From Streptomyces roseoviridis (lineage in GTDB: Bacteria > Actinomycetota > Actinomycetes > Streptomycetales > Streptomycetaceae), in the NCBI RefSeq assembly GCF_039535235.1, contig NZ_BAAAWU010000001.1:6947001-7011000 (forward strand): a stretch of DNA of 64,000 nucleotides, given 5' to 3'. The notes below the pieces were generated by a model. The model did not search any database and was not told the DNA's origin. It worked only from the letters and a program-made list of their open reading frames with translations. Positions 10,260 to 26,493 of the stretch are shown in pieces; position 1 is the stretch's first letter; each line of letters begins with the position of its first letter. The position numbers were made by a program, and so were the translations under genes.

Positions 10260-10345
10260 GGCGACCGTCTCCTCGACGAGAGCCCTCCGGGGTCCATGAT
10301 GCGGGAGGGGCGCGCGCCCCGGCGCCGTCGGCGGAGCCGGCCCGC

Positions 10346-10852
10346 TCAGGTGCTCCTCGGAGGCAGCCGGTGCAGGGCGACCTCACCGAGGGCGCCGTTC
10401 GCGACGTCCACGGTCATGTACGTGCAGTGGGGCTGGCGGCGGCGGTCGGTGGGGGAGCCGGGGTTGAGCAGGCGCAGTCCGCCGGGGGCCGTGGAGTCCC
10501 AGGGGATGTGGCTGTGGCCGAACACCAGGACGTCGAGGTCTCCGAAGCGCCGGGCGCAGCGCTGCTCCCGGCCCGCCGCGGCCCCCGTCTCGTGCACCAC
10601 CCCGAAGCGCAGCCCGGCCAGTTCCGCCCGGGCGACCTCGGGGAGTCTCCGCCTCAGGGCGGGTCCGTCGTTGTTGCCGTACACGCCGATGAGGCGGCGG
10701 GCGCGCCCTTCCAGCAGGTCGAGGACGGCCTCGTCGGTCCAGTCCCCGGCGTGGAGGACGACGTCGGCCCGGTCGACGGCCGCGAGGAGCTCCTCCGGAA
10801 GGCGTCTGGCGCGGGACGGGAGATGGGTGTCCGACGTGAGCAGCAGCCGCAT
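10346..10852 (-). CDS. Metallophosphoesterase (YfcE/MJ0936 family)
   Basis: A 168-residue phosphodiesterase with all the metal-site motifs of the calcineurin-like fold: SDTH (7-10), AGDW, GNND, GHSH and the C-terminal NPGSPTDRR. Length and motif spacing match YfcE/MJ0936-type enzymes, which use a two-metal centre (often Mn) to hydrolyse phosphodiesters; physiological substrates are usually unknown. The ATG at 10852 follows AGGGTGG. No signal peptide is present, so it should be cytoplasmic. Confidence 0.9.
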   Translation of the reverse strand: MRLLLTSDTHLPSRARRLPEELLAAVDRADVVLHAGDWTDEAVLDLLEGRARRLIGVYGNNDGPALRRRLPEVARAELAGLRFGVVHETGAAAGREQRCARRFGDLDVLVFGHSHIPWDSTAPGGLRLLNPGSPTDRRRQPHCTYMTVDVANGALGEVALHRLPPRST

Positions 10853-13349: not shown

Positions 13350-14912
13350 ATGCAGTGCGAGACCCTGGGAACCACCCCGGACCTCATCGCGGCCTTCACG
13401 GAAGCCGCTCTTCGCAACCCGGAGCGCGCGGCACTCGTCCACGAAGGGCGGATCCTCACCTACCGTCGGCTGTACGAGCTCGTGGACGGCCTCGCGGGGC
13501 GGATCGGCCGGCTCGGGCAGCGGCCCGGAACCATCGCCGTGCCCGCGACGCACACCCCGGAGACCGTCGTCGCGCTGCTCGGCGTACTGGCGGCCGGCGG
13601 GGTCTACTGCCCCGTCGATCCGGCCTTTCCGCCGTCACGGCAGCAGGACATGACGTCCGCCGCCGGCTGCCGGGCCGTCCTCGGTACCGCCACGGCCCTC
13701 GCCGCCGGACTCGGTCTGCCGGTCGTCGACTTCCCCGGCGAAGCGGCCGCACAGCCGGCTTCGACGACGGCGACCGGTGGCCCCGGGCAGCACGTGGATC
13801 CCGAAGCACCCGCGTACGTCCTCTTCACCTCGGGCTCCACGGGCCGCCCCAAGCCGGTCGTGACACCGCGCCGGGCGATCTCGGCCTCCGTGCGCTCGCT
13901 CCGCGACCTCTTCGCCCTGACCGAAGAGGACCGGGTGCTCCAGTTCGCCTCGCTCAACTGGGACACCTCGCTGGAGGAGATCCTCCCGACGCTGACCACG
14001 GGAGCCGCCCTGGTCTTCGACCGCGAGGCGCACTCCGGATCCTTCCCGCGCTTCCTGCGGATGGTGGAGCGCGAACGCGTCACCGTGCTCGACCTGCCCA
14101 CCGCCTTCTGGCACGAACTGGTGCTCCACCTCGCCGAGGAGGGCACGGCCCTTCCCGGCAGCATCCGGCTGGTGGTCATCGGCGGGGAGGCCGTCAGCCC
14201 CGCCCGGCTGGCCGACTGGAGCCGCCTCGACACGAGCCGGATCCGCCTGGTCAACACCTACGGTTGCACCGAGACCACCCTGATCACCCACGCCGTCGAC
14301 CTGCACGGACCTGGCGCCCCGGCCCCCGGCTGGGACTGGGACGGCGGCGCCAGGGCGCCGATCGGACGGGCCCTGCCCCACGTCGTGGAGGACATCGGCG
14401 ACCGGGACGAGCTGCTGATCGGCGGCCCCGCGACGGCCCTCGGCTACCTCGGGATGCCCCGTGCCACCGAGGAGGCGTACGCGGTCGTGGGCGGCGAACG
14501 CCGGTTCCGCACCGGGGACCGGGTCGGCCGGACGCCCGACGGCCTCCTCACCCACGAGGGCCGGCTCGACGACGAGCTCAAGATCCGGGGCATCCGCGTC
14601 GACCCGGGAGAGGTGGAGGCGCACCTCGCCGGCCACCCCGCGGTGAACGCGGTGGCCGTCACCGGCGCCACCACCGCCGGCCGCGCCGCCCTGGTCGCCT
14701 ATGTGGTGCCCCGGCCGGACACCCGGACGCGGGACCTCGGCACCGAACTGCGCTCCTATCTGCACGAGCGGGTGCCCGCCCACCTCGTGCCGAGCCGGAT
14801 CACTCTCGTCCCCCAGCTCCTGCTGACCACGAGCGGCAAGGTCGACAGGAAAGCCTCGCACCAGCGATACGCAACCGTGAACAGGTCAAAGGAGACCGTT
14901 GATGAGCGTTGA
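13350..14912 (+). CDS. Stand-alone NRPS-type adenylation enzyme
   Basis: A 520-residue adenylation domain with no attached condensation or carrier domain. It would activate an amino acid as its adenylate and load the separate carrier protein encoded next. Core motifs are all visible: A3 FTSGSTGRPK (159-168), A4 NWDTSLEE with the carboxylate/amine-contacting Asp at 205, A5 NTYGCTETT, A7 RTGD, A8 GRLDDELKIRGIRVDPGEVE and A10 TTSGKVDRK with the catalytic Lys. The conserved A4 Asp suggests an alpha-amino acid substrate; I cannot read the specificity code with confidence. ATG at 13350 is chosen; an in-frame TTG at 13332 would add six residues. The 3' end overlaps the carrier-protein start by 11 nt, so the two are coupled. 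Confidence 0.9.
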   Translation: MQCETLGTTPDLIAAFTEAALRNPERAALVHEGRILTYRRLYELVDGLAGRIGRLGQRPGTIAVPATHTPETVVALLGVLAAGGVYCPVDPAFPPSRQQDMTSAAGCRAVLGTATALAAGLGLPVVDFPGEAAAQPASTTATGGPGQHVDPEAPAYVLFTSGSTGRPKPVVTPRRAISASVRSLRDLFALTEEDRVLQFASLNWDTSLEEILPTLTTGAALVFDREAHSGSFPRFLRMVERERVTVLDLPTAFWHELVLHLAEEGTALPGSIRLVVIGGEAVSPARLADWSRLDTSRIRLVNTYGCTETTLITHAVDLHGPGAPAPGWDWDGGARAPIGRALPHVVEDIGDRDELLIGGPATALGYLGMPRATEEAYAVVGGERRFRTGDRVGRTPDGLLTHEGRLDDELKIRGIRVDPGEVEAHLAGHPAVNAVAVTGATTAGRAALVAYVVPRPDTRTRDLGTELRSYLHERVPAHLVPSRITLVPQLLLTTSGKVDRKASHQRYATVNRSKETVDER

Positions 14913-15198
14913 CACCACTGCCTCCGCCGCCGGCGAACCGCCGACCGGCCCAGGCGCCCCCACCGGCTCCCGCGCCGGTGCCGACACCGAGGGCGTGGTG
15001 GCGATGTTCCGGCGCGTCCTGGAGACCGAGGACGTCGCGGCGGACTCCGACTTCTTCCTCCTCGGCGGCGACTCGCTGGTCGCCACCCGGGTGCTCAGCG
15101 CCGTCGCCCGCACCCACGGCGTGGAACTGACCTTCGAGGACTTCGTCGGCGCCCCGACTCCCAGACGGCTCGCCGAGAAGATCGCGGCCGCCCGGTGA
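14902..15198 (+). CDS. Stand-alone peptidyl carrier protein
   Basis: A 98-residue carrier protein with the phosphopantetheine attachment motif LGGDSL (Ser58). The first about 28 residues are a Gly/Pro/Thr-rich tail, followed by a four-helix carrier domain (VVAMFRRVLETEDVAADSDFF before the Ser, then the helix LSAVARTHGVEL). ATG at 14902 lies inside the end of the adenylation gene, with AAAGGAG upstream. Its own stop overlaps the GTG of the flavin oxidase. The three-gene coupling argues that the loaded aminoacyl thioester is the oxidase substrate. A phosphopantetheinyl transferase is not in the window. Confidence 0.92.
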   Translation: MSVDTTASAAGEPPTGPGAPTGSRAGADTEGVVAMFRRVLETEDVAADSDFFLLGGDSLVATRVLSAVARTHGVELTFEDFVGAPTPRRLAEKIAAAR

Positions 15199-16571
15199 CG
15201 GCCCGCGACGCCTCCCCGGCCACCGGCGCCTCCCCGCGCACCGGCGGCGTCAGGAGCGCCGTGGTCGTCGGTGCCGGGTTCGCCGGACTGACGGCCGCGA
15301 CCGAACTGGCCGTCGGCGGGGTCGACGTGACCGTGCTGGAGGCCCGCGACCAGGTGGGCGGCAGGGCCCGCGGGATCCAGGTCTGTGCCGACGGCTGGGT
15401 GGACGCGGGCGCCGCCTACCTGGGGGACCGCCACACGGAGCTCCACGCGCTGCTGGCCGCCCTCGACCTCAAGACCACGCCCACCACCATGCGCGGAGCC
15501 AGCCGCTTCGCCCTCGGGGCCGAGGAGACCACCCGCGACGGCCGGTTCCCCCCGCTCAACGCCGTGGCGCTCGGCGACCTCTTCGAGCGGCTCGACGAAC
15601 TCACCGCGGCCGTGCGGCCCGACGCCCCCTGGCTCACCCCCGGTGCCGAGGAGCTGGACGCCCTCACCGCCGGGGCATGGGCCGAACGCCACCTCGCCCA
15701 TCCCGACGCCCGGCTCTTCTTCCCGCTGTTCCTGGGCGAGATGATGGCAGCCGACCCGGCCCGGGTGTCCATGCTCCACGTCGCCTTCTACCTGCGGTCG
15801 GGCGGCGGGCTGCGCTACCTCAACGCCTTCGAGGGCGGCGCCCAGCAGGACCGCGTCGACCGAGGGGCCCACCAGGTGTGCGAGCGGCTGGCCGCGCGCC
15901 TGGGGCCCCGGGTGCGGCTTCGGGAGCCGGTCCACGCCGTGCACCAGGACGACGACGGCGTCACGGTCCACAGCACGGGCGGGGCACACCGGGCCGACGT
16001 CGCCGTCATGGCCCTGCCGCCCCTCCTCGCCGACGCCGTCGACCACCGGCCCGAGCCGCCCGCCCGCCGGGCGAGCGACCGCACCGCGCGGGGCTGCGCG
16101 GTCAAGGTCCACCTGGTGTACCCGGCACCCGTCTGGCGGGAGCACGGCCTCTCGGGCTGGTCGGTGAACGCCGAAGGGCCGCTGCTGTCCACCGTCGACG
16201 ACTCGCCGGCCGGAGCGGACGTCGGCGTCCTCACCGGCTTCGTCACGGGCGCCGAGGCCCATCGCTTCGCGGAGCTCGATCCGCGCGCACAGCGCTCGGC
16301 GGCGCTCCGGCAGGCCGCCCGGCTCTTCCCGATGCTCCCCGAACCCGTCGGCTTCCACGTGACGGACTGGGTCAACGAGCCCTACAGCAAGGGCTGTTAC
16401 GCATCCCTCTTCGGCCCCGGCGACTGGATGCGGCACGGCCCCACCCTGACCGCACCGCACGGGCGCGTGCACTGGGCCGGCACGGAGACCAGCACCGAGT
16501 TCTTCGGACTCCTGGAGGGAGCCGTCCGCTCCGGCCGCCGGGCGGCGGCCGAGATCCTCGCCCGCCCCTGA
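15195..16571 (+). CDS. FAD-dependent amine oxidase (MAO-like)
   Basis: A 458-residue flavin amine oxidase. The dinucleotide-binding motif GAGFAG lies at residues 26-31, followed by the LEARDQVGGRARG stretch typical of the family. Near the C-terminus, SKGCYASLFGPG (Cys401) aligns with the Cys that forms the covalent 8-alpha-S-cysteinyl FAD bond in monoamine oxidases, and HWAGTETSTEFFGLLEGAVRSGRRAA closes the flavin site. It probably oxidises a C-N bond to an imine. Its GTG start overlaps the carrier-protein stop (GTGA), so a carrier-bound aminoacyl substrate is inferred. No signal peptide is present. A hairpin follows directly. Confidence 0.88.
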   Translation: MTARDASPATGASPRTGGVRSAVVVGAGFAGLTAATELAVGGVDVTVLEARDQVGGRARGIQVCADGWVDAGAAYLGDRHTELHALLAALDLKTTPTTMRGASRFALGAEETTRDGRFPPLNAVALGDLFERLDELTAAVRPDAPWLTPGAEELDALTAGAWAERHLAHPDARLFFPLFLGEMMAADPARVSMLHVAFYLRSGGGLRYLNAFEGGAQQDRVDRGAHQVCERLAARLGPRVRLREPVHAVHQDDDGVTVHSTGGAHRADVAVMALPPLLADAVDHRPEPPARRASDRTARGCAVKVHLVYPAPVWREHGLSGWSVNAEGPLLSTVDDSPAGADVGVLTGFVTGAEAHRFAELDPRAQRSAALRQAARLFPMLPEPVGFHVTDWVNEPYSKGCYASLFGPGDWMRHGPTLTAPHGRVHWAGTETSTEFFGLLEGAVRSGRRAAAEILARP

Positions 16572-16574
16572 CGC

Positions 16575-16601
16575 GCGGCGCGGGCCGCCGGCCGGCCCGC
16601 G
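16575..16601 (+). terminator. Hairpin after the amine oxidase gene
   Basis: GGCGCGGGCC (16575-16584) pairs perfectly with 16592-16601 around a 7-nt loop, three bases after the stop codon. It suggests that the adenylation-PCP-oxidase unit ends here and that the ligase/aminomutase genes downstream form a second transcription unit. Confidence 0.65.
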
Positions 16602-16939
16602 CCACCGGCGCCCCTCGCCGGCCGGTGCGGCCGCCGGGCGCACCCCGCCGGTCACCGCCCCGCCCCGTCGACGCCGTCGTCCGGAACACCGCCCGTCCAC
16701 CCCCCTGAGCCGCCCCCTACCGAGCACGACGCGCCACCACGCTCCACGACGCCCCAGCACGCTCCGCCCCACGCCCGCCCGGCAACCCGCGTGCCCGCCC
16801 CGGCCCGTACCGCGTGCCTCACGACCACCCCGGCAAGGCAGCCGAACCACACGTTCCGCCGAGCACAGCAAGCCTTCGACCAGTCGCCGGGCCCCGGCCC
16901 CACAGGGCCCGTCCCGGCGACCCGTAACGGGAGACCCTC
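16602..16939. other. Intergenic region inside the cluster, with a 20-bp tandem duplication
   Basis: No gene seen. A 20-nt unit ending in ACGCTCC or GCACGCTCC is repeated head to tail at 16726-16745 and 16746-16765 with two mismatches. GGGAGA at 16929-16934 serves as the ribosome-binding site of the next gene. The promoter of the second transcription unit should lie here, but I cannot assign -35 and -10 boxes. Confidence 0.5.
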
Positions 16940-18646
16940 ATGAGCGACCACACGTCCATCGCCCCTCTCGAAGCCAGACAGCGTCTGATGGCCGAGCCCA
17001 CGCTCGGAGCCGGCAACTTCCTCGACCACGCCATCGCCGTCAACCCGCACCGCGCCGTCCCGTACGCGTACACCCACCGCGTCGACCACCGGGGCGCCGT
17101 CGAACTGCGCGGCCACAGCCTGCTCGACCTCGCCGCCCTTCGCGACCGCTACGCGAAGTGGTACTGGGCCAACGGCGTCCGGCCCGGCGACCCGGTCGGC
17201 GTGGTGGTCGGCGAGGGCATGGAGCCCCTGCTGCACTTCCTCGCGCTCTCCGCGCTGGGAGCCGTCCCCGCCCTCGTCAACGACGCCATGCGGCACGAGG
17301 TGATGGTGCGCTACCTGAACCACGTCGGCGCCGTCGGCGTGGTCGCGGACGACCCCACCCGCCTCGCCGCCGCCTACCGCGAGACCCCGCACCGCCGGCC
17401 CGGCTTCATCGCCATGGCCGCCGAACTCCACGTCTTCGACGCCGGGTCGGCCGAGCTCCCCGAGGTCTATCCGTACCGGCACGCCGCCGACGACGTGGTC
17501 GCGCTCATCCACTCCTCCGGGACCACCGGCACACCGAAGTCCACCAAGCTGGCGCACCGCCAGTTCTGGGAGGGCAAGCAGCCGCGCATGGTGCGCTTCC
17601 CCGCCGAGGACTACGACCGGCTGATGTCGCTGATGCCGCACACCCACGCGGGCGGCCTCAGCTACTTCCTCACCGCCACCCTGCTCGGCCTGCCGACCGT
17701 GGTCATGTCCGACTGGCGGCGCACCGTCGTCGAGCCGGTGATGGAGGCGTTCCAGCCCACCATGGTCGCCTCCTTCCCCCGCACCTTCGTGGAACTGGCC
17801 ACCGGAGAACTCCCGGTCGAGGGCGCCGCGAAGGTGCACTCATGGTTCAACACCGGCGACAGCGCCCACTACGGACACATCCGCCGGCTCGTGCAGCTCG
17901 GCGAGCGGCCGGCAGGGCTGATCAGGCCCTGGCTGCTGCCCCGGGAGAAGGAGGAGCAGCCGGCCCTGCCCGGCTCGCAGTTCGTCGACGGCCTCGGCTC
18001 CTCCGAGATGGGCATGGCCCTGTTCGGGCAGATGACCACACCGGAGACCGAGCGCGACGACCGCTGCGTCGGCAAGCCCCTCGACGTGGTCGAGAAGGCC
18101 GCCGTGCTCGACGAGAACGGCGAGGAGGTCCCCGACGGCACGGTCGGGATGCTCGGGGTGATCACGCCCTCGCGGACCCCCGGTTACTGGAACGACGACC
18201 GGCTCACCCGCACGTTCGAACTGAACGGCTACTGGCTCACCGGCGACGTGGCCCGCCGCGACGCCGAGGGCAGGTTCTACCACCTCGACCGGACGGTGGA
18301 CGTCATCGACACCGCGGACGGGCCGGCGTACAGCCTCCCCATCGAAGAGGTCCTCCTCGCCGACTGCGCCGCGCTGGTGCAGGACTGCTCGGTGGTCGGC
18401 GTCCCCGCCGGCCCGGGGCGCGGACAGCTGCCGCTCGCCGTCGTCCGCCTGCAGGCCGAGGCCGCCGGGAGCACGGCGGAGGAGGTGCGCGAGGCCGCCA
18501 ACAAGGCCCTCGCCGCCGCCGGTCTGACCCCGCTGGCCGCGGTGAGCATCGCGCGCACGCCGGAGGACTTCCCGCTCGGCCCCACCGGCAAGGTCCTCAA
18601 GCGAGAGCTCCGGACCCGCTTCGCCACGGCCCTGACCGGCCGGTAG
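16940..18646 (+). CDS. AMP-forming acyl/aminoacyl ligase (ANL superfamily)
   Basis: A 568-residue adenylate-forming enzyme with the P-loop HSSGTTGTPKSTKL (191-204), a GSSEMGMALFG motif at the A5 position, WLTGDVARRD (A7), FYHLDRTVDVID (A8) and the C-terminal PTGKVLKREL with the catalytic Lys. It resembles acyl-CoA synthetases and free-standing acyl-AMP ligases more than amino-acid-specific NRPS domains. Substrate unknown. No carrier domain is attached, so it may feed CoA, the separate carrier protein or an amine acceptor. It is the first gene of the second unit; 12 nt separate it from the aminomutase gene. Confidence 0.85.
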   Translation: MSDHTSIAPLEARQRLMAEPTLGAGNFLDHAIAVNPHRAVPYAYTHRVDHRGAVELRGHSLLDLAALRDRYAKWYWANGVRPGDPVGVVVGEGMEPLLHFLALSALGAVPALVNDAMRHEVMVRYLNHVGAVGVVADDPTRLAAAYRETPHRRPGFIAMAAELHVFDAGSAELPEVYPYRHAADDVVALIHSSGTTGTPKSTKLAHRQFWEGKQPRMVRFPAEDYDRLMSLMPHTHAGGLSYFLTATLLGLPTVVMSDWRRTVVEPVMEAFQPTMVASFPRTFVELATGELPVEGAAKVHSWFNTGDSAHYGHIRRLVQLGERPAGLIRPWLLPREKEEQPALPGSQFVDGLGSSEMGMALFGQMTTPETERDDRCVGKPLDVVEKAAVLDENGEEVPDGTVGMLGVITPSRTPGYWNDDRLTRTFELNGYWLTGDVARRDAEGRFYHLDRTVDVIDTADGPAYSLPIEEVLLADCAALVQDCSVVGVPAGPGRGQLPLAVVRLQAEAAGSTAEEVREAANKALAAAGLTPLAAVSIARTPEDFPLGPTGKVLKRELRTRFATALTGR

Positions 18647-18658
18647 GCGGGACCTCGG

Positions 18659-20092
18659 ATGATCCGGCAGCCGTACCAGTACGCGCGGAGCCCGCTGACC
18701 GAGCCGGACTGGCGCCGGCTGCCGGGCTGGCGCCGTGTCACGGAGCGCGAATGGCGCGACGCCCAGTGGCAGCGCGCCCACTGCGTGAAGAACCCCCGCC
18801 AGCTCAAGGCCGTCACCGGCGGCCTGCTCACCGACCGCTTCTTCACCGACCTCGCCGCCGACCAGGCGCAGTTCGCCACCATGGCGATGCTGCTCACCCC
18901 GCAGATGCTCAACACCATGGCGCCCCGGGCCGCCCTCGAACCCGAGGCGTTCACCGAGGCGTTCCTCGCCGACCCGGTCCGTCGGTACATGCTGCCGGTG
19001 CGCTCGGACCGGCACCCGACGTGGCCGAGCCACCCCAAGGCGGGACGGGACTCGCTGCACGAAGCCGACATGTGGGTGGTGGAGGGCCTCACCCACCGCT
19101 ATCCGAACAAGGTCCTGGCCGAACTGGTCGCCACCTGCCCGCAGTACTGCGGGCACTGCACCAGGATGGACCTGGTCGGCACCTCCACCCCCCAGATCAC
19201 CAAGGCCCGGCTCGCGCTCCGCCCCCGCGACCGGCAGGAGCAGATGCTGGACTACCTCAAGCGCACCCCGGCCGTGCGCGACGTGGTGGTGTCCGGCGGA
19301 GACGTCGCCAACGTGCCCTGGCCGCAGCTGGAGGCCTTCCTCATGCGGCTCCTCGACCTGGGGTCGGTACGGGACATCCGCCTGGCCAGCAAGGCCGTCG
19401 TCGGCCTGCCCCAGCACTGGCTGCGGCCCGAGGTGACCGAGGGGGTGGGGCGGGTCGCCGCCGTCGCCGCGCGGCGCGCGGTCAACCTGGCGGTGCACAC
19501 CCACGCCAACCACGCGCAGTCCGTCACCCCGCTGGTCGCCGAGGCCACCCGCGCCCTCCTCGACGCGGGCGTCCGGGACGTCCGCAACCAGGGGGTGCTG
19601 ATGCGCGGCGTCAACGCCACCCCCGAGGACCTGCTGGACCTGTGCTTCGCCCTCCAGGGCGAGGCGGGCATCCTCCCGTACTACTTCTACCTCTGCGACG
19701 TCGTCCCGCACGCCGAGCACTGGCGGACCCCCCTCCACCAGGCCCAGCGGCTCCAGGAGGCGATCATGGGCTACCTCCCCGGCTACGCCACCCCGCGGAT
19801 CGTGTGCGACGTACCGCACGTCGGCAAGCGCTGGGTGCACCAGGCCGTCGCGTACGACCGCGAACGCGGCATCTCGTACTGGACGAAGAACTACCGCACC
19901 GAGCTCGAGGTCCGGCAGTCGCCCGACGCGGACCTCACCGCTGCGCTGGCCCGCCGCCACCCGTACTACGACCCGCTGGACACCCTTCCGGAGTCCGGCC
20001 GCCGCTGGTGGGCGGAGCGAGCCCCCGCCCAGGACGGACCGGCCGGCGTCCCGCACCCCCGCCCCGCCGCACCCCCCGAGGACACCGCGTGA
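18659..20092 (+). CDS. KamA-family radical SAM aminomutase
   Basis: A 477-residue radical SAM enzyme of the lysine 2,3-aminomutase family. The iron-sulfur motif is CPQYCGHC (C160, C164, C167; CX3CX2C). VVVSGGDV matches the family GGDP-type SAM contact. Lys390 in VPHVGKRWVHQ sits where the PLP-binding lysine of lysine 2,3-aminomutase lies, although the usual Gly-rich PGGGGK context is changed. The family moves an alpha-amino group to the beta carbon, so a beta-amino acid building block is the likely product. Which amino acid is used cannot be told. The altered lysine context suggests a substrate other than lysine. The stop overlaps the GTG of the ATP-grasp gene. Confidence 0.88.
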   Translation: MIRQPYQYARSPLTEPDWRRLPGWRRVTEREWRDAQWQRAHCVKNPRQLKAVTGGLLTDRFFTDLAADQAQFATMAMLLTPQMLNTMAPRAALEPEAFTEAFLADPVRRYMLPVRSDRHPTWPSHPKAGRDSLHEADMWVVEGLTHRYPNKVLAELVATCPQYCGHCTRMDLVGTSTPQITKARLALRPRDRQEQMLDYLKRTPAVRDVVVSGGDVANVPWPQLEAFLMRLLDLGSVRDIRLASKAVVGLPQHWLRPEVTEGVGRVAAVAARRAVNLAVHTHANHAQSVTPLVAEATRALLDAGVRDVRNQGVLMRGVNATPEDLLDLCFALQGEAGILPYYFYLCDVVPHAEHWRTPLHQAQRLQEAIMGYLPGYATPRIVCDVPHVGKRWVHQAVAYDRERGISYWTKNYRTELEVRQSPDADLTAALARRHPYYDPLDTLPESGRRWWAERAPAQDGPAGVPHPRPAAPPEDTA

Positions 20093-21153
20093 ACCCCTCC
20101 CAAGCGCCCGCCACCGGCCCGCTGCGCCGGATGTGCTGGATCTTCCCCGACCGGGAGTCGACCCGGATGGCCGGGACATGGCACGCCATGTTCTGGGACC
20201 TGTACGCCGAGGTCGCCGAGGACCTGGGCCTGAGCTGGACCCGGCATTCCCCCGACGCCGTGACGGTGGACTGCACGGACCCCCAACGCCCCCGCGTCTA
20301 CGTCGACGACGAACCGGTCACGCCCCGCGACACCCTCTTCATCACCGCGCTCTACTCGCTGCCCTACCAGCAGATGGACGTCTTCAACCAGTACGCCCTC
20401 TGCACGGTGCTGCAACAAGCCGGGTTCTACCTGCCGTTCCCGCCCGAGACCTCCCTCATCGGCAACGACAAGCTGGCCACCCTGCTCCACCTCGGCGGCT
20501 CCCCGATCCCCCCGATCCCGACCGTCCGCATCGGCACGGGACGCGACGTGAGCAGGCACCTGTACGAGGTGGCCCTCGCGAACATGACGTATCCGGCGAT
20601 CGTCAAACCGGCCGGCTGGTGCGGCGGAGGCGGCATCAACCTCGCCCGGAGCGCGGGCGACATCCGGGGCCTGGCCAGCCTCGCCCAGGGCGGCGACACC
20701 ACCCTCGTGATCCAGCCCTACCTCGGCGACGACACCGTCGACCACCGGGTGTACGTCATCGACGGCGCCGCCCACACGGTCCTGAGGCGGACCCCGGAAC
20801 CCGGCTCCGCGGTCTCCAACGCCAGCCACGGCGGCACGCTCGAGTTCACCCCCGTCCCGGAGGAACTCGAGAAGGCCACCGCCTACTTCGCCCAGCGGCT
20901 GCGCCTCCCCTTCTTCTGCGTCGACTTCCTCCACGACGGCCGGCGGTTCTGGTTCTCCGAGCTGGAGCCCGACGGCGTCATCCCCCGCGTCCCCACGGAC
21001 CCGGACCGCACGATCCAACGGGACGTCGTGCGGGCCCGGTTCACCGCCTACCGGGACGCCCACGCGCGGCACCTCGCCGCCGCCGGGACCTCCGGCGGAG
21101 CCGACGCCGACGACCTGGCGCCCCTGTCCACCTCACCGACGGAAACGAGCTGA
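20089..21153 (+). CDS. ATP-grasp ligase (RimK/glutathione-synthetase-like)
   Basis: A 354-residue protein with ATP-grasp features: TYPAIVKPAGWCGGGGIN is the lysine plus glycine-rich loop, TLVIQPYLGDDTVDHRVYVI carries the adenine-contacting and acidic residues, and FFCVDFLHDG...WFSELEPDGVIP gives the metal-binding Asp/Glu and the late loop. ATP-grasp ligases form amide bonds via acyl phosphates. In a cluster without a condensation domain, this enzyme is a prime candidate for peptide-bond formation. The GTG at 20089 overlaps the aminomutase TGA. The preferred acyl and amine partners are unknown. Confidence 0.82.
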   Translation: MNPSQAPATGPLRRMCWIFPDRESTRMAGTWHAMFWDLYAEVAEDLGLSWTRHSPDAVTVDCTDPQRPRVYVDDEPVTPRDTLFITALYSLPYQQMDVFNQYALCTVLQQAGFYLPFPPETSLIGNDKLATLLHLGGSPIPPIPTVRIGTGRDVSRHLYEVALANMTYPAIVKPAGWCGGGGINLARSAGDIRGLASLAQGGDTTLVIQPYLGDDTVDHRVYVIDGAAHTVLRRTPEPGSAVSNASHGGTLEFTPVPEELEKATAYFAQRLRLPFFCVDFLHDGRRFWFSELEPDGVIPRVPTDPDRTIQRDVVRARFTAYRDAHARHLAAAGTSGGADADDLAPLSTSPTETS

Positions 21154-21158
21154 CCACC

Positions 21159-22376
21159 ATGTTCTCGCTCACCCCCGAGGCGGCCGAGCCGCGGCTCGCG
21201 GTCGCCCGCGGAACACTGGAACGCCTGCGGCAGGTGCCGGAGCTGGCCCTCCGCTACCGCGACTGCCCGGACCCCGGCACCCTCGACGGCATCGCCGCGC
21301 TCCCGCCGCTGCTCAAGGACGACCTCAACCTGGCCCTCGCACACCTGCGGCCGCGCGCCGAGCACGGCGCCACCTGGCTCTTCCAGAGCGGCGGCAGCAC
21401 CGGCGCCCCCAAACTCGGCCACGCCCCCACCGGCTTCTACATGTCCGGCGTCCACGCCCACTGGCAGCCGCTCGACCGCGACGACGTCTTCGTCAACGCC
21501 TGGGGCGCCGGCCGCATGTGGGGCGCCCACTTCCTGGCGGCCGCCCTGGCCGACCTGTCCGGCTGCCAGGTCATCGCGGTCGGCTCCGTCGCCCAGGACG
21601 AGTACGCCGAGTGGCTGGCCTTCTTCAAGACGCGCGAGGTGACGGCGATCGGCGGCACACCGAGCGTGCTGCGCCTCTGGTTCGCCCACGCCCGCGCCGC
21701 CGGCCTGGAACTGCCGCACCTGCGCAAGGTGCTCTGGCTCGGCGAGGCATGGCAGCCGCAGCTGGAGGAGGACATGGCCGCCGTCGCGCCGGCGGCACGG
21801 CGCTGGGGCATGTTCGGCAGCACCGAGACCTGGGTGGTCGGCACCAACACGCCCGACTGCCCCGCGGACCTCTTCCACACCCTGCCCGACCAGCTGGTCC
21901 ACGTGGGCGAGGACCAGCTCCTGGACTTCACCACCCTCAACCCCGAGATGCTCAACCCGGTGCTGCGCTACCGCACCGGCGACGCGGGACGGCTGGAGCC
22001 CTGCCCCTGCGGCCGGCCCGGACGCGCCATGCGGGTGCTCGGCCGCCGCGACAGCGTGGTCCAGGTCCGGGGCCTCGGCCTGCACGTCGACGAGGTCATC
22101 ACCCGCGTCGAACGGGAGCCGGGCGTCTCGCGCGCCCAGGTGGTGATCACCGAAGCCGGCGGACGCGCCGCCGGCGTGGACGTGCTGCTGCTCACCGCCC
22201 CCGGCGCGGACGTCGACGCCGAGCGGCTGCGCAAGGAGATCCTGTCCGGGACCTTCACCCTCAGCACGGCCTTCCAACACGATCCGGAGAACTTCCGCGT
22301 GCGCCCCGTCACGGAGCTGATCAGCAACGACCGGACCGGGAAGACCGCCCACCTCGTGGTGCGGGAGGGACGGTGA
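21159..22376 (+). CDS. PaaK-like AMP-forming ligase (first copy)
   Basis: A 405-residue member of the phenylacetate-CoA ligase/coenzyme F390 synthetase branch of the ANL superfamily. Visible are the P-loop FQSGGSTGAPK, FGSTETW at the A5 position, YRTGDAG (A7), a CPCGRPG cysteine pair just before the GRRDSVVQVRGLGLH hinge (A8), and the C-terminal NDRTGKTAH lysine. Free-standing members activate aryl or acyl carboxylates and can form CoA thioesters or amides. ATG at 21159 lies six bases after the previous stop. The 3' end overlaps the MFS start (GTGA), so it belongs to the same operon. Confidence 0.85.
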   Translation: MFSLTPEAAEPRLAVARGTLERLRQVPELALRYRDCPDPGTLDGIAALPPLLKDDLNLALAHLRPRAEHGATWLFQSGGSTGAPKLGHAPTGFYMSGVHAHWQPLDRDDVFVNAWGAGRMWGAHFLAAALADLSGCQVIAVGSVAQDEYAEWLAFFKTREVTAIGGTPSVLRLWFAHARAAGLELPHLRKVLWLGEAWQPQLEEDMAAVAPAARRWGMFGSTETWVVGTNTPDCPADLFHTLPDQLVHVGEDQLLDFTTLNPEMLNPVLRYRTGDAGRLEPCPCGRPGRAMRVLGRRDSVVQVRGLGLHVDEVITRVEREPGVSRAQVVITEAGGRAAGVDVLLLTAPGADVDAERLRKEILSGTFTLSTAFQHDPENFRVRPVTELISNDRTGKTAHLVVREGR

Positions 22377-23674
22377 GGTCCTGGCGGCCGGTGTCCCTCG
22401 GCCCCGAGTTCAACCGCTTCTGGATCGGCCAGTCGGTCAGCACCGTCGGCGACCGCATCACCGTCTTCGTCGTGCCGACCCTGATGATCTTCGTCCTGGA
22501 CGCCTCCGCCTTCCAGGTCGGCATCGTGGCCATGGCCCAGTACCTGGGCATCCCGCTGCTCGGCCCGCTCGCCGGCATGCTGGTCGACCGGTGGGACAAC
22601 CGCCGCACCCTGCTCGTCTGCGACGGCGCCCGGCTGGCGGCGGTCGCGGTCATCCCCCTGGCGTACTGGCAGGGCTGGCTGTCGACCCCGCTGCTGTTCG
22701 CCTGCGTGGCCGTGATCAGCGGCGCCACCATCTTCTTCACCGTCGGCTACCTGGTCGCCGTGCCCGCCGTCGTACCCAAGGAGCACCTGGTACGCGCCTA
22801 CTCCCGGCTGGAAGGCAGCCGCTCGGTCTCCGAGGTCTCCGGCCCCTCCCTGGCGGCCGGCCTCTACGGCGCGCTCGGCGTGGCCGCGCTGATCGTCGAC
22901 GCCGCCAGCTACCTCGTCTCCGCCCTGTGCCTGCGGTCCATGCGGCCCTGGGGCGAGCGGACCGTCGTCGAGGGATCGGTCTGGCAGCGGCTGACGTCCG
23001 GCTTCCGGCTGAACTGGGCCGACCCGGTGCTGCGCCGCGTGGTGGTGGCGGCCGTGACGCTCAACTGCGGCGGACCCGTCTTCGTCACCGTGCTCCCCAT
23101 CCTCGCCTACCAGGGACTCGGCGTCTCGGTCGGAGTCTTCGGCGCCGCCATGTCCGTGGCGGCGGTGGGCGCCCTGGTCGGCGCGGCCGTCGCGCCGAAG
23201 GCCGGCGAACGGCTCGGGACCGGCCGGATGCTGGCCTGGTCGCTGCTGCTGCACTGCCTGGTGGGCCTCGGCGTGCTGGCGGCACCCGCCCTCCCGGCCG
23301 GCGCGGTGATCGCCGTGACCATGGGCTGCTACGGCTTCTTCATGTCCTGCATCAACGTGTGCAGCGCCCCCATCCGGCAGTCCCGGATGTCCGCGCACCA
23401 CCAGGGCGTGATGCACGCGGCCTTCCGGACCGCCACCTGGGGCGTGATCCCGCTGGCCGCCCTGGCCGGCGGCCTCGCGGTCAGCCTCCTGACCGGTCCG
23501 CTCGGCATCCTGGACGCGGCCCGCGTCACCATGGCCGGCGGCACGCTCCTCGCCGCCTGCTCCTTCCTGCCGGCGCTGCGGATCCAGCGCCTGATGGACG
23601 CGGCCGAGCGGCCGAAGCCACCGGAGGCGGACGGCGGAACCGCCGCACCGGCCCTCGCCGAGGGCACCTCGTGA
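22373..23674 (+). CDS. MFS transporter
   Basis: A 433-residue, very hydrophobic protein with about 12 predicted membrane helices. An N-terminal FNRFWIGQSVSTVGDRIT stretch and DRWDNRRTLLVCD (the loop 2-3 motif) are characteristic of the MFS enterobactin-exporter-like (MFS_3) group. In this operon it most likely exports the cluster product and may give self-protection. The GTG start at 22373 overlaps the upstream stop, and the stop overlaps the SDR start. A hydrophilic tail of about 30 residues ends the protein. Confidence 0.9.
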   Translation: MRSWRPVSLGPEFNRFWIGQSVSTVGDRITVFVVPTLMIFVLDASAFQVGIVAMAQYLGIPLLGPLAGMLVDRWDNRRTLLVCDGARLAAVAVIPLAYWQGWLSTPLLFACVAVISGATIFFTVGYLVAVPAVVPKEHLVRAYSRLEGSRSVSEVSGPSLAAGLYGALGVAALIVDAASYLVSALCLRSMRPWGERTVVEGSVWQRLTSGFRLNWADPVLRRVVVAAVTLNCGGPVFVTVLPILAYQGLGVSVGVFGAAMSVAAVGALVGAAVAPKAGERLGTGRMLAWSLLLHCLVGLGVLAAPALPAGAVIAVTMGCYGFFMSCINVCSAPIRQSRMSAHHQGVMHAAFRTATWGVIPLAALAGGLAVSLLTGPLGILDAARVTMAGGTLLAACSFLPALRIQRLMDAAERPKPPEADGGTAAPALAEGTS

Positions 23675-24600
23675 CCGCGGCCGGCGGGACGCCCGCCGCG
23701 GAAGGGGCAGGACGCGAGACACCGAGGGTGGTCCTGGTGACCGGGACCTCCTCCGGCATCGGTCTCGCCACGGCTGTCGCCGCCGCCAGGGCCGGCTTCG
23801 CCACGGTCGCCACCCTGCGCGATCCCGCCCGGGCCGGAGCCCTGCGGGAGGCGGCGGACCGGGCCGACGTCGCGCTGGACGTCCGCGGGCTCGACGTCAC
23901 CGACCCGGACTCCGTCGCCCACTGCGTCGACGCCGTACAGCAGACGTACGGGCGGCTCGACGCCGTGGTCAACAACGCCGGCGTCTCCAACTTCGACCCC
24001 ACCCTGGAGATGTCCACCACCGAGGCCCTGCGGGCCAACCTGGAGGTGAACTTCTTCGGCGTGGTCGAGGTGAGCCGGGCCGCGATGCCCCTGCTCCGCG
24101 CCTCCCGCGGCCGCCTCCTCACCATCGGCAGCGTCCACGGGATCGTCGGCCAGCCCTTCAACGAGGCATACTGCGCCGCGAAGTTCGCCGTCGAGGGGTT
24201 CATGGAGAGCCTGGCCCCGGTCGCGGAGGCGCACGGCGTGAAGGTGTCCGTGGTGGTCCCCGGCTTCGTCCGGGGCACCCGGTTCGGGATCTTCCCCGAC
24301 ATCAACCGCAAGACCATCGAGGCCGCCTCCGGCCCCTATGCCGGCACCTTCGCCGACTACATCCACTGGGTCACCCACCAGGGGTGGGAGGGCGCCGGGC
24401 AGGACGCGGCCGACGTGGCGGACGTCGTGATACGGACCCTGCTCGCCGAGCGGCCGGCCTTCCGCGTCCCCACCGACGCCTGGGCCGCCGCCTACCTGGA
24501 GAACAAGCTGACCGACCGCGACGGGTCCGTCGTGCGGGAACTCGCCCGCACCTGGATCGGACGCGGGCCGGAACCCGACGACACAGAGCAGGAGAGGTAG
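23671..24600 (+). CDS. Short-chain dehydrogenase/reductase
   Basis: A 309-residue classical SDR. The cofactor motif TGTSSGIG lies at 24-31, NNAG at 101-104, and the catalytic Ser154, Tyr167 and Lys171 are in the SVHG...YCAAK arrangement. It should interconvert a carbonyl and an alcohol with NAD(P)H, or reduce an imine; in this cluster it could act on the product of the flavin amine oxidase, which is an inference. The GTG start overlaps the MFS stop and the TAG stop shares its last base with the next GTG start. Confidence 0.9.
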   Translation: MTAAGGTPAAEGAGRETPRVVLVTGTSSGIGLATAVAAARAGFATVATLRDPARAGALREAADRADVALDVRGLDVTDPDSVAHCVDAVQQTYGRLDAVVNNAGVSNFDPTLEMSTTEALRANLEVNFFGVVEVSRAAMPLLRASRGRLLTIGSVHGIVGQPFNEAYCAAKFAVEGFMESLAPVAEAHGVKVSVVVPGFVRGTRFGIFPDINRKTIEAASGPYAGTFADYIHWVTHQGWEGAGQDAADVADVVIRTLLAERPAFRVPTDAWAAAYLENKLTDRDGSVVRELARTWIGRGPEPDDTEQER

Positions 24601-25856
24601 TGCCCGCCAAATCCCTTCAGGAACTGGTCGACTTCGTCCGCACCCACTCGCCCTTCTACGCGGAGGCGTACCGCGACGTGCCGCGCACGGTCGCGCACCT
24701 CTCCCAGCTCCCCGTCATCGACCACGCGGAGTTCTGGGCGGCGAACACCTGGCCCGACAACCGGGTGCTGACCGGCCCCCTGACCGACGCCGGCGTCTAC
24801 AAGACCGGGGGCACCACCGGCGTCCCCAAGCTGTCGGTCTGGTCGCGGTCGGAGCACGCCGACTCGGTCACCGCGTTCGGCGCCGGCATCGTGCAGGCCG
24901 GACTGAAGCCCGGACACCGGGTCGCCAACCTCTTCTGGGCCGGCGAACTGTACGGCGGGATGCTGTACATCGAGCACGCCCTGCACGCGGCGCCGGTGGA
25001 GAACGTCCGCCTGCCGGTCGGGGCCGGTGCCCCCAACGAGTTCGTCGCCGACCTGATCGGCGACTTCGGTGTGAACGTCCTGGCCGGTGTCCCGATGAAG
25101 CTGGCCGCCGTCGCCGAGTGCCTCGTCCGCCGCGGCCGGACCGCCGACTCGGTGGAACTGCTGCTCTTCGGCGGCGACCTGCTCTTCACCGATCTGCGGC
25201 CGATCCTGCTGCGGGCCTTCCCCAAGGCGGCCATCGCCTCGGTCGGTTACGCCTCCATCGACGCGGGGCTCGTCGGGCAGCCCGTACCCGGCGAGGACGT
25301 ACGGGTGCACGAGGCGTTCCCGCACCGCACCGTCGTGGAACTCGTCGACGAGGCCACCGGCGAGCAGATCACCACACCGGGAGTGCCGGGACGGGTCCTC
25401 GTCACCAATCTGTTCCGCACCCTCATGCCGGTCATCCGGTTCCCGACGGGCGACCGCGGCGAGTGGGCCGACCCGGAGTGCCGGCGGTTCCGTCTGCTCG
25501 GCCGCTCCATGGAGGGCGGACGCGTCGGCACGGTCTCGATGCCGATCGAGGACGTCCGCGCCGTCCTCGTGGAGGCGGACCCGGACCGGTACATCGCCGG
25601 CATGCAGATGGTCCAGCGCCGCTGGGACGGACGCGACGGACTGATCCTGCGCCTCGGATACGTCGAGGAGCCCCCGCCCGGCCTGAGCGCCCGGCTCGTC
25701 GAGGCGGTCTACGCGGCCCGGCCCCTCTTCCCGGCGGAGGTCGCGGACGGCGCCATCCACGAGCTCGGCATCGAGTGGGTGCCGCGCTCCGAACTGGTCG
25801 TCAACCCCCGCACCGGCAAGCTCCAGCAGGTCGTGGACGAGCGACCGGCCACCTGA
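24600..25856 (+). CDS. PaaK-like AMP-forming ligase (second copy)
   Basis: A 418-residue PaaK/F390-synthetase-like adenylating enzyme, clearly diverged from the first copy. Its P-loop is YKTGGTTGVPK, GYASIDAGLVG is at the A5 position, RFPTGDRG at A7, and the catalytic Lys is in NPRTGKLQQ. It starts MPAKSLQELVDFVRTHSPFYAEAY, typical of the group. With two PaaK-like enzymes, one acyl-AMP ligase, one adenylation domain and one ATP-grasp protein, the cluster can activate up to five carboxylates. It is the last gene of the operon; the GTG start is fused to the SDR TAG and a hairpin follows within 11 nt. Confidence 0.85.
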   Translation: MPAKSLQELVDFVRTHSPFYAEAYRDVPRTVAHLSQLPVIDHAEFWAANTWPDNRVLTGPLTDAGVYKTGGTTGVPKLSVWSRSEHADSVTAFGAGIVQAGLKPGHRVANLFWAGELYGGMLYIEHALHAAPVENVRLPVGAGAPNEFVADLIGDFGVNVLAGVPMKLAAVAECLVRRGRTADSVELLLFGGDLLFTDLRPILLRAFPKAAIASVGYASIDAGLVGQPVPGEDVRVHEAFPHRTVVELVDEATGEQITTPGVPGRVLVTNLFRTLMPVIRFPTGDRGEWADPECRRFRLLGRSMEGGRVGTVSMPIEDVRAVLVEADPDRYIAGMQMVQRRWDGRDGLILRLGYVEEPPPGLSARLVEAVYAARPLFPAEVADGAIHELGIEWVPRSELVVNPRTGKLQQVVDERPAT

Positions 25857-25866
25857 CCGGGGCGCC

Positions 25867-25909
25867 GCCCGGCGCGTGCCCGCCCGAGGGGACCGGGCAG
25901 GCGCCGGGC
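25867..25909 (+). terminator. Terminator at the end of the biosynthetic operon
   Basis: GCCCGGCGC (25867-25875) pairs with 25901-25909, and TGCCCG (25877-25882) pairs with 25894-25899, forming a long two-part stem just after the stop at 25856. It marks the right boundary of the cluster. Confidence 0.75.
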
Positions 25910-25921
25910 GACCGGCCCCGC

Positions 25922-25983
25922 GGTCTCCCGCCCCGCGGCCCCCGGTCTCCCGGCCCCCCGGTCTCCCGGCCCCTGGTCTCCCG
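25922..25983. repeat. GGTCTCCCG direct repeats
   Basis: GGTCTCCCG occurs at 25922, 25944, 25960 and 25975, set in C-rich spacers, between the convergent ends of the cluster and the thioesterase gene. It is probably a replication-slippage product; no coding potential is seen. Confidence 0.7.
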
Positions 25984-26049
25984 GCTCGCGGGTCCTTCCG
26001 CCCCGCGGCCCGCCGTCAGCCGTTCCCCGGTCGTCTCCCGGCCCCGCCG

Positions 26050-26493
26050 TCAGTCGCTGCGCGGCCGCGCTCCGCCGGCGAGCATCACGCTCTGCCCGCG
26101 GAACTCCGCGACCACCGTTCCGTCCGTCCGGCGGACCGTCACGTCGTAGATCCCGCTGCGTCCCGACCGCGTCCGCTCCACGGCCTCGGCGAGCAGCTCG
26201 TCGTCCACCGCGGCCGGCAGCAGAAAGGTGACCTGCGCCGACTGCGCCACGGTGACCGGCCCGTAGCCGTTGCAGGCGTACGCGAACGCGGCATCGGCGA
26301 AGAGGAACAGGAACCCTCCGTGGGCCATGCCATGGCCGTTCACCATGTCCTCGCCCACCCGCATGCGCATCACCGCCCGCCCCGGCGCGACCTCCTCCAG
26401 GGCGATGCCCAGCGACCGGCAGGTGCGGTCCCGCTCGTACAGCTCCGCGATCCCGTCCGGGGCGCCCTCCGGCACCCCCGTCCCCACACCCAC
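26050..26493 (-). CDS. Hot-dog thioesterase, PaaI-like
   Basis: A 147-residue single-domain hot-dog protein. The catalytic-region signature GHGMAHGGFLFLFADAAFAYACN matches PaaI-type acyl-CoA thioesterases (HGG turn, then an Asp on the central helix). Members hydrolyse aryl- or acyl-CoA and often rescue stalled CoA thioesters. The GTG at 26493 is favoured because GGGAGGGGC precedes it; neighbouring in-frame GTGs are possible. It is transcribed towards the biosynthetic cluster but on the opposite strand and beyond a terminator, so membership in that pathway (which contains PaaK-like enzymes) is only a possibility. Confidence 0.85.
   Translation of the reverse strand: MGVGTGVPEGAPDGIAELYERDRTCRSLGIALEEVAPGRAVMRMRVGEDMVNGHGMAHGGFLFLFADAAFAYACNGYGPVTVAQSAQVTFLLPAAVDDELLAEAVERTRSGRSGIYDVTVRRTDGTVVAEFRGQSVMLAGGARPRSD

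What the first reader, a model, noticed from the sequence alone, without database searches (positions are those of the whole stretch)
13350..25856. Condensation-domain-free biosynthetic cluster built from five carboxylate-activating enzymes
Ten genes in two coupled units encode a free adenylation domain, a free carrier protein, an MAO-like oxidase, an acyl-AMP ligase, a KamA-type aminomutase, an ATP-grasp ligase, two PaaK-like ligases, an SDR and an exporter. There is no condensation, thioesterase, ketosynthase or cyclase domain. Motifs needed for catalysis are visible in all five activating enzymes. Amide bonds would therefore have to be made by ATP-grasp and/or ANL-type ligases. I do not recognise a characterised pathway with this set; the likely product is a small, exported, beta-amino-acid-containing amide. 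This is the best candidate for an undescribed system here.
Basis: partly seen in the sequence, partly recalled or inferred. Interest (0 to 1): 0.9.

Follow-up and report, generated by a model that had tools for sequence, protein, structure and literature searches.

The report
Nitrite-using beta-lysine gene cluster
Eleven actinomycete genes that probably turn lysine into beta-lysine, oxidise it on a carrier protein, add a nitrogen atom taken from nitrite and export the product; the product itself is unknown.

Summary
The ten genes are real and lie exactly where reported. An eleventh belongs with them: a PaaI-type thioesterase on the other strand (26050-26487), so 'no thioesterase' is wrong. The set is strongly conserved. 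A scan with gene 4 gave 62 actinomycete loci: carrier protein and amine oxidase in 62, A domain and gene 4 in 61, KamA in 52, and the complete ATP-grasp/PaaK/MFS/SDR block in 46.

The main correction concerns gene 4. It is not a plain acyl-AMP ligase: it falls inside the ANL clade of nitrite-using N-N bond-forming enzymes (AvaA6, Tri17). In 14 of 62 loci the cluster carries nitrite-supply genes: nitrosuccinate lyase with a flavoprotein in 4, NasC-type nitrate reductase in 5, NarK-type transporter in 7. KamA looks like a lysine 2,3-aminomutase, and the A-domain code points to beta-lysine.

Best reading: beta-lysine is made, loaded on the carrier, oxidised at an amine and released; gene 4 adds nitrogen from nitrite; RimK-like and PaaK-like ligases add amides. 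My literature searches found no description or product. Order of steps and structure are inference. I rate it a new variant of a known kind, on an unusual aliphatic substrate.

The parts
13350..14912 (+). Gene 1: free NRPS adenylation domain, 520 aa; substrate code DTEDVGTLIK, predicted L-beta-lysine
   Evidence: AMP-binding 216 bits and AMP-binding_C; code by alignment, shared as DTE[DN][VI]GT[LMQ][IV]K by the 62 cluster A domains examined
14902..15198 (+). Gene 2: free carrier protein, 98 aa, with the GGDS motif
   Evidence: PF00550 56.7 bits; sequence printed; in 62 of 62 loci
15195..16571 (+). Gene 3: flavin primary-amine oxidase, 458 aa; invariant K304, C401-Y402
   Evidence: Amino_oxidase 222 bits; profile nearest to MAO and putrescine oxidase structures; invariant in 26 orthologues; in 62 of 62 loci
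16572..16939 (+). Intergenic gap between the two gene runs; possible site of a second promoter (inferred from position)
   Evidence: sequence; no promoter test made
16940..18646 (+). Gene 4: ANL enzyme of the CreM/AvaA6/Tri17 (nitrite-using) clade, 568 aa
   Evidence: NF058622 367.6 bits (cut-off 975) against 157.9 for the best generic ligase model; PDB 9xb8, 8ztz and Tri17 8tf7/9bq0 top hits; tree
18659..20092 (+). Gene 5: KamA-type radical-SAM lysine 2,3-aminomutase, 477 aa
   Evidence: TIGR03820/TIGR00238 below cut-off; alignment to 2a5h keeps CxxxCxxC, D347, D384; orthologues in lysine-fermentation loci
20089..21153 (+). Gene 6: RimK/LysX-like ATP-grasp ligase, 354 aa
   Evidence: RimK and GSH-S_ATP Pfam; AlphaFold model pLDDT 85.6; Foldseek nearest RimK, ArgX, LysX at 13-18% identity
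21159..22376 (+). Gene 7: PaaK-like AMP ligase, 405 aa
   Evidence: AMP-binding; model pLDDT 84.4; Foldseek nearest putative acyl-CoA ligase BT_0428, then AjiA1, NatL2, PaaK1
22373..23674 (+). Gene 8: MFS exporter, 433 aa
   Evidence: MFS_1/MFS_3; EntS among NCBIfam hits, below cut-off
23671..24600 (+). Gene 9: SDR oxidoreductase, 309 aa
   Evidence: adh_short 156 bits
24600..25856 (+). Gene 10: second PaaK-like AMP ligase, 418 aa
   Evidence: PaaK-type NCBIfam hits below cut-off; PaaK, AjiA1 and 6siw PDB hits
26050..26487 (-).
   Evidence: TIGR02286 143.6 bits over cut-off 118.9; 4HBT; orthologue in 48 of 62 related loci

Best explanation
A specialised-metabolite cluster that builds an N-N (N-nitroso, diazo or derived) compound on a beta-lysine scaffold without any condensation domain.

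Inferred steps, each with my own estimate: KamA makes L-beta-lysine from L-lysine (0.9). The free A domain loads it on the free carrier protein (0.85). The MAO-type flavoenzyme oxidises an amine of beta-lysyl-S-PCP to an imine that can close to a five-membered ring (0.65). The PaaI-type thioesterase releases or edits the thioester (0.6). The ANL enzyme adenylates nitrite with ATP and transfers the nitroso group to the amine or enamine nitrogen (0.8). A RimK-like ATP-grasp ligase and two PaaK-like ligases then add amide-linked groups (0.6), and the MFS protein exports the product.

In this genome nitrite would come from an unlinked nitrate reductase. Some relatives carry a supply inside the cluster.
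For: Gene 4 scores 367.6 bits to the AvaA6 diazotase model and 157.9 to the next, generic model. Its best structures include Tri17 (8tf7/9bq0; identified as Tri17 in PMC11705231, passage). In a tree it nests inside the AvaA6/Tri17/9xb8 set, 100/99. Nitrite-supply genes sit in 14 of 62 clusters: nitrosuccinate lyase family (580-612 bits in the three of four loci scanned) next to a flavoprotein directly after gene 4 in L090, L099, L100, L102; NasC-type with a NirB-like reductase in L057, L066, L068, L109, L111; NarK-type in 7. Random placement would give about 0.09 lyases and 0.13 NasC. Tri17 also accepts pyrrolidines and piperidines, so a cyclic aliphatic substrate is within the family's reach. 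KamA: D347/D384 and CxxxCxxC kept; orthologues sit beside lysine 5,6-aminomutase. 9 of 9 assemblies whose locus lacks KamA have a 66-75% orthologue elsewhere, 6 of 8 fetched stretches with lysine 5,6-aminomutase genes. A-domain code DTEDVGTLIK; the A domain beside KamA orthologue L013 reads DTEDVGTMVK. Gene 3 is closest to primary-amine oxidases.
Against: The window's cluster has no nitrite-supply gene, and in 48 of 62 loci none was recognised (flank genes without a partner in another locus were not typed). The own genome has no nitrosuccinate lyase (best 47.9 bits), only an unlinked NasC-type reductase (807 bits, cut-off 1100). The supply genes in relatives are themselves below their curated cut-offs (lyase 580-612 of 650; NasC 743 of 1100; NirB 303 of 578; NarK 280 of 312), and the flavoprotein called CreE-like matched no NCBIfam model in three loci. 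Gene 4 is far below the AvaA6 cut-off (367 of 975) and on a long branch (1.51) that the tree program flags as possibly misplaced. 9xb8 is known to me only by title. The beta-lysine code is recalled, and no paper in the library prints it; the A domain near KamA in L034 reads DVEEVGVVSK, so a KamA neighbour does not always mean that code. KamA is below the equivalog cut-off (157 of 525).
Confidence: 0.7

Rival explanations
1. Transient diazotisation: gene 4 diazotises an intermediate only so that nitrogen is lost as N2 (as in avenalumic and p-coumaric acid biosynthesis), and the final product has no N-N bond but a deaminated or rearranged beta-lysine unit.
For: The closest NCBIfam model is AvaA6, whose pathway is diazotisation-dependent deamination (PMC10777205, passages). 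A mycothiol-type DinB/MDMPI protein occurs in 13 loci, 12 of them without the ligase block, which would fit a reactive intermediate.
Against: No denitrifying partner of the AvaA7 kind was noticed in the cluster, though no dedicated search for one was made. The SDR, a possible reductant, is absent from the 14 loci without the ligase block.
Confidence: 0.18
2. One reading: gene 4 is a carboxylate-activating acyl-AMP ligase, and the cluster makes an exported beta-lysine amide with no N-N chemistry.
For: The ANL superfamily is mostly carboxylate-activating (recalled); gene 4 is on a long branch. The window cluster itself has no nitrite genes.
Against: Large score gap between the diazotase model and generic acyl ligases, nesting inside N-N enzymes, and nitrite-supply genes beside gene 4 or in the cluster in several separate arrangements.
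Confidence: 0.1
3. A streptothricin-like or viomycin-like beta-lysine peptide in which a stand-alone A domain or ligase makes the amide bond of beta-lysine itself.
For: Beta-lysine-type A-domain code. A stand-alone A domain that forms amide bonds is known in streptothricin (title of Maruyama 2012 seen in a reference list).
Against: No streptolidine, gulosamine or capreomycidine genes in the cluster. It does not explain the oxidase, gene 4 or the nitrite genes.
Confidence: 0.05

Closest known systems
ANL-type nitrite-dependent N-N enzymes and their clusters (cremeomycin CreM, avenalumic acid AvaA6, p-coumaric acid CmaA6, spinamycin SpiA7, triacsin Tri17)
   Same: Same ANL clade as AvaA6 and Tri17; in some relatives a nitrosuccinate lyase and a flavoprotein directly beside the enzyme, as in those clusters (PMC11705231 passages).
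   Different: Substrate supply is beta-lysine on a carrier protein with an amine oxidase, not an aromatic amine or a hydrazone; nitrate reductase in some clusters; separate, long-branched clade.
Streptothricin and viomycin/capreomycin beta-lysine pathways
   Same: Lysine 2,3-aminomutase plus a beta-lysine A domain and carrier protein (pathways recalled).
   Different: No streptolidine, capreomycidine or condensation genes; amine oxidase, N-N enzyme and PaaK ligases instead.
Negamycin pathway (Kitasatospora purpeofusca)
   Same: Beta-lysine, nitrite-derived N-N bond, ATP-grasp (PMC12154649, passages).
   Different: Its N-N bond is made by a NegJ/KinJ heme enzyme. K. purpeofusca NRRL B-1817 carries our cluster too (L063), with the only close KamA orthologue; its two other KamA-like proteins are 32-33% identical and on another contig. 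The negamycin locus itself was not identified here.
Azaserine pathway (azs)
   Same: NRPS-type assembly of an N-N compound with stepwise oxidation (title and start of abstract only, PMC10445470, listing).
   Different: N-N bond from hydrazinoacetic acid (same listing), not from an ANL enzyme with nitrite; no KamA known to me.
PaaK-like ligases NatL2, AjiA1, BagE/FevW
   Same: Fold or family relatives of genes 7 and 10.
   Different: About 20% identity in the fold matches; substrates here unknown. That such ligases form amide or ester bonds directly is recalled.

Membership tests
ANL-type nitrite-dependent N-N bond-forming enzymes | Sequence falls inside the clade of CreM/AvaA6/Tri17 relatives | tested here: met
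   tree (nested, 100/99; long branch 1.51, flagged by the program; CreM itself not in the tree)
ANL-type nitrite-dependent N-N bond-forming enzymes | Adenylation motifs (P-loop SSGTTGTPK, SEMG glutamate, TGD, C-terminal GK lysine) intact and invariant | tested here: met
   Invariant columns S192-K200, E356, T434-D436, G550-K551 in 8 orthologues
ANL-type nitrite-dependent N-N bond-forming enzymes | Nitrite source encoded in the cluster | tested here: inconclusive
   Recognised in 14 of 62 relatives, absent from the window's cluster; own genome has an unlinked NasC type only
ANL-type nitrite-dependent N-N bond-forming enzymes | ATP- and nitrite-dependent N-N bond formation | not testable with these tools
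   needs assay
3-aminoavenalumate diazotase (AvaA6 equivalog) | NF058622 score at or above 975 bits | tested here: not met
   367.6 bits
Lysine 2,3-aminomutase | CxxxCxxC cluster motif and the two aspartates aligned to D293/D330 of 2a5h (their role in holding the lysine amine is recalled) | tested here: met
   CPQYCGHC, D347, D384
Lysine 2,3-aminomutase | PLP lysine (K337 of 2a5h, recalled) | tested here: inconclusive
   K390 lies at that place, but the printed alignment ends one residue short
Lysine 2,3-aminomutase | TIGR03820 equivalog cut-off | tested here: not met
   157.3 of 525.4 bits
Lysine 2,3-aminomutase | Close orthologues in a lysine pathway | tested here: met
   Lysine 5,6-aminomutase family in 17 of 28 fetched KamA loci (family identified from L025) and in 6 of 8 further stretches
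Beta-lysine-activating A domain | Binding-pocket code DTEDVGTMVK (recalled from viomycin VioO) | tested here: met
   DTEDVGTLIK, 8 of 10 identical, the other two conservative; the code could not be found in the paper library
PaaI hotdog thioesterase | TIGR02286 over cut-off | tested here: met
   143.6 against 118.9 bits
Streptothricin/viomycin clusters | Streptolidine or capreomycidine synthesis genes | tested here: not met
   None among the 11 genes or the 7 other flanking proteins scanned
Negamycin cluster | NegJ/KinJ-type heme enzyme | tested here: not met
   All 11 genes belong to other families; no KinJ profile was searched

The most novel reading that the evidence does not exclude
A previously undescribed class of nitrogen-nitrogen natural products in which an ANL-type, ATP- and nitrite-dependent enzyme nitrosates or diazotises an aliphatic, beta-lysine-derived imine/enamine made on a carrier protein, giving an N-nitroso, diazo or cyclic N-N (pyrazole- or pyridazine-like) unit. 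This unit is then used as a module: amide-tailored by RimK/PaaK ligases here, joined to a polyketide synthase in the S. humidus/S. rishiriensis type, or exported as such in the S. netropsis type.
Probability: 0.45. Interest if true: 0.85.

Novelty: new variant of a known kind. Interest (0 to 1): 0.66.

Why it matters
The natural substrates of the ANL-type N-N enzymes that I read about are aromatic amines and a hydrazone. A widespread cluster that feeds one with carrier-bound, oxidised beta-lysine would open an aliphatic branch of this chemistry. It would also link nitrate/nitrite metabolism directly to antibiotic-type biosynthesis: some relatives carry a nitrate reductase and transporter in the cluster. 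The core recurs in 62 loci with three kinds of surroundings, so one solved product would explain many silent clusters.

Tried and rejected
Rejected: negamycin locus (different N-N enzyme; K. purpeofusca has our cluster with its own KamA); streptothricin/viomycin (partner genes absent); simple phenylacetate-type CoA pathway (PaaK- and PaaI-type genes are present, but the thioesterase also occurs in 12 loci with the core and KamA and no PaaK); fatty-acid activation by gene 4; chance neighbourhood.

Led nowhere: naming the product from the polyketide-carrying relatives (a reducing PKS module typed in G166; a lone KS and a FadD-like ligase in S. rishiriensis, the KS also in S. kobensis; pabB-like, weak chorismate-mutase-like and GNAT genes in G166; no compound recognised); the A-domain code in print (0 papers); papers on this gene set. 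Gene 3's site of oxidation (C3 or C6 amine) could not be decided. A code read by eye (note) had one position wrong and is replaced by the aligned code.

Dropped or limited: L112 (Pseudomonas putida, 25%) left out; L108 is a 3.2 kb fragment and L071's gene 1 is cut by the contig end, both kept in n = 62. The split KamA of G124 was not fetched (28 of 29 read); G459 (L087) was not fetched. The tree used 23 of the 25 loci and 18 of the gene 4 orthologues. The 62 loci are a lower bound: two peptide patterns. The chance estimate takes gene frequencies from nine cluster-carrying genomes and is rough.
Full report
WHAT IS THERE. Most neighbours overlap or nearly touch; one gap of 368 bp separates genes 1-3 from 4-10. 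None of the eleven genes has a TTA codon.

CORRECTION 1: A THIOESTERASE. Next to gene 10, on the minus strand (26050-26487), is a PaaI hotdog thioesterase: TIGR02286, 143.6 bits, cut-off 118.9. Its orthologue is in 48 of 62 related loci, including 12 that have the core and KamA but no PaaK-type gene, so it belongs to the cluster.

CORRECTION 2: GENE 4. Its best curated model is the nitrite-dependent diazotase AvaA6 (NF058622, 367.6 bits, cut-off 975); the next model, a generic acyl-CoA ligase, scores 157.9. Its closest solved structures are 9xb8, 8ztz and Tri17 (8tf7, 9bq0), colinear over nearly the full length. The review PMC11705231 (passages read) places CreM in the ANL superfamily, gives AvaA6 and Tri17 as CreM homologues and SpiA7 and CmaA6 as AvaA6 homologues, describes nitrite as the nitrogen source, and says that 8TF7/9BQ0 are Tri17. 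In a 47-row tree (18 gene 4 orthologues, 23 of the 25 loci, three structures, three A domains as outgroup) gene 4 and its orthologues form one clade nested among these enzymes: with the 9xb8 group 100/99, and these together with the AvaA6/Tri17 group 100/100. The branch is long (1.51), and the program warns that such long branches may be joined falsely. CreM itself was not in the tree, and 9xb8 is known only by title.

CONSERVATION. A scan of one genome per species with an alignment of gene 4 gave 63 loci; 62 are actinomycete orthologues at 69-94% identity, from 61 assemblies by title, and the 63rd (P. putida, 25%) was dropped. Of these 62: carrier protein 62, oxidase 62, A domain 61, gene 4 61, KamA 52, thioesterase 48, SDR 48, MFS 47, ATP-grasp 46, PaaK-a 46, PaaK-b 33. 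46 hold all of ATP-grasp, PaaK-a, MFS and SDR; 14 (one a fragment) hold none of ATP-grasp, PaaK-a and SDR. Two close relatives, G377 and G350, carry all eleven genes at 81-95% identity. None of the eight other window genes tested from the two flanks matches beside these clusters, so I set the limits at 13350-26487. Gene 3 is specific to the cluster: 5 of 392 genomes of the genus, own included, have an orthologue at 66% or more, and the next hit is at 41%. All five lie in this cluster. The genus is Streptomyces, inferred because G350 has the contig length of S. litmocidini L051.

NITRITE SUPPLY. In four loci (S. adustus L090, S. netropsis L099, S. gelaticus L100, Nocardioides speluncae L102) gene 4 is followed directly by a 640-670 aa flavoprotein and a nitrosuccinate lyase family member, in three different arrangements. 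The lyase scores 580-612 bits in the three scanned (cut-off 650). The flavoprotein has PF13454 in the one scanned with Pfam (L090) and no NCBIfam match in the three scanned; I call it CreE-like by position. In five others (L057, L066, L068, L109, L111) the cluster carries a NasC-type nitrate reductase (743 bits in the one scanned, cut-off 1100) and a NirB-like reductase (303 of 578), and in seven a NarK-type nitrate/nitrite transporter (280 of 312 in the one scanned). Together 14 of 62 loci have at least one. With the frequency of these genes in nine genomes, random placement in the 1.28 Mb held would give 0.09 lyases and 0.13 NasC (observed 4 and 5). Counting only separate arrangements (3 and 2), the chances are about 1e-4 and 8e-3 (rough). 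The window's genome has no nitrosuccinate lyase (best 47.9 bits) but has an unlinked NasC-type gene (807 bits, below the cut-off). Clusters without their own nitrite genes are also common for the AvaA6 family: 72 of 134 in PMC10777205 (passage).

BETA-LYSINE. KamA aligns to Clostridium lysine 2,3-aminomutase 2a5h with the CxxxCxxC motif and both aspartates D293 and D330 (here D347, D384) kept; their role in holding the lysine amine is recalled. It scores below the TIGR03820 cut-off. Of 29 relatives' orthologues at 63% identity or more among 150 genomes, 28 were fetched. In 17 of the 28 the locus holds a member of the protein family identified as lysine 5,6-aminomutase in L025. Nine of the ten loci without KamA could be checked (the tenth is a 3.2 kb fragment): 9 of 9 assemblies have an orthologue of 66-75% elsewhere, in 6 of the 8 fetched stretches beside lysine 5,6-aminomutase genes. 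In S. kobensis KamA lies about 12 kb from gene 4. The A-domain code of the window is DTEDVGTLIK; the 62 cluster A domains examined (from the loci, the window, L041 and L045) read DTE[DN][VI]GT[LMQ][IV]K. The A domain beside another KamA orthologue, L013, reads DTEDVGTMVK, the beta-lysine code I recall for VioO; the one near KamA in L034, beside a capreomycidine synthase, reads DVEEVGVVSK (the code was not found in print).

OTHER ENZYMES. Gene 3 is closest to MAO, cyclohexylamine and putrescine oxidases (best entries 332-261 bits), far from L-amino acid oxidases (104 or less). K304 and C401-Y402 are invariant in 26 orthologues and match by eye the MAO-B lysine and flavin cysteine-tyrosine, while the second cage tyrosine is a leucine, L439 (numbering of MAO-B recalled). 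The ATP-grasp model (pLDDT 85.6) is closest to RimK, ArgX and LysX, which join amino acids to carboxylates (function recalled). The gene 7 model (84.4) is closest to a putative acyl-CoA ligase (BT_0428) and then to AjiA1, NatL2 and PaaK1.

HOW IT PROBABLY WORKS. Lysine becomes beta-lysine, is loaded on the carrier and oxidised at one amine. Either amine, once oxidised, can close to a five-membered imine (chemistry from structure, not tested). The thioesterase releases it, and gene 4 transfers a nitroso group from nitrite; Tri17, its relative, accepts pyrrolidines and piperidines. In types with the ligase block the product is then amidated and exported. In polyketide types (for example S. humidus L092, S. 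rishiriensis L095) the same core stands beside an acyl carrier protein and a reducing PKS. In S. netropsis, Streptomyces NRRL S-340 and Peterkaempfera griseoplana the core stands nearly alone with an exporter. The order of steps, the nitrogen that is nitrosated and the final structure are inference.

NOVELTY. No paper found was seen to describe this gene set; I read listings, and passages of seven papers (of PMC13061610 also outline and abstract). Subscription papers and cluster databases were not searchable. The kind (ANL/nitrite N-N biosynthesis; stand-alone ligases for amides) is known, and the combination and substrate are new to me.

Noticed in passing
L092, L094, L095, L104, L105, L045: Polyketide variant: the same core plus an acyl carrier protein and a large PKS (KS-AT-DH-ER-KR-ACP in L045 by Pfam); a lone KS and a FadD-like ligase follow in S. 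rishiriensis, and four of the six have a pabB-like family member. Product not recognised.
   Followed up: partly
L099, L101, L103: Minimal variant: KamA, gene 4, MFS, A, PCP, oxidase, thioesterase and a DinB/mycothiol-type protein; S. netropsis adds nitrosuccinate lyase and a CreE-like gene. A good test system.
   Followed up: partly
L059 and L088 (Nonomuraea aurantiaca): Two different copies of the cluster in one assembly.
   Followed up: no
L102 (Nocardioides speluncae): Two ATP-grasp and two MFS genes of this family side by side upstream of the core, as if two ligase blocks had met.
   Followed up: no
L038 (G035, Streptomyces): A KamA orthologue beside a histamine N-monooxygenase-like flavoprotein (below cut-off); possibly another beta-lysine pathway with N-hydroxylation.
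   Followed up: no
L013 (G018, Streptomyces) 7214-10482: A-PCP protein with code DTEDVGTMVK beside a KamA orthologue (75%) outside our cluster; another probable beta-lysine cluster.
   Followed up: partly
L025, L160-L165: Lysine-fermentation-type genes (KamA, lysine 5,6-aminomutase, KAL) occur together in several actinomycete families.
   Followed up: partly
window 32167-32239: tRNA-Gly (ccc), the only tRNA that ARAGORN finds in the window.
   Followed up: no
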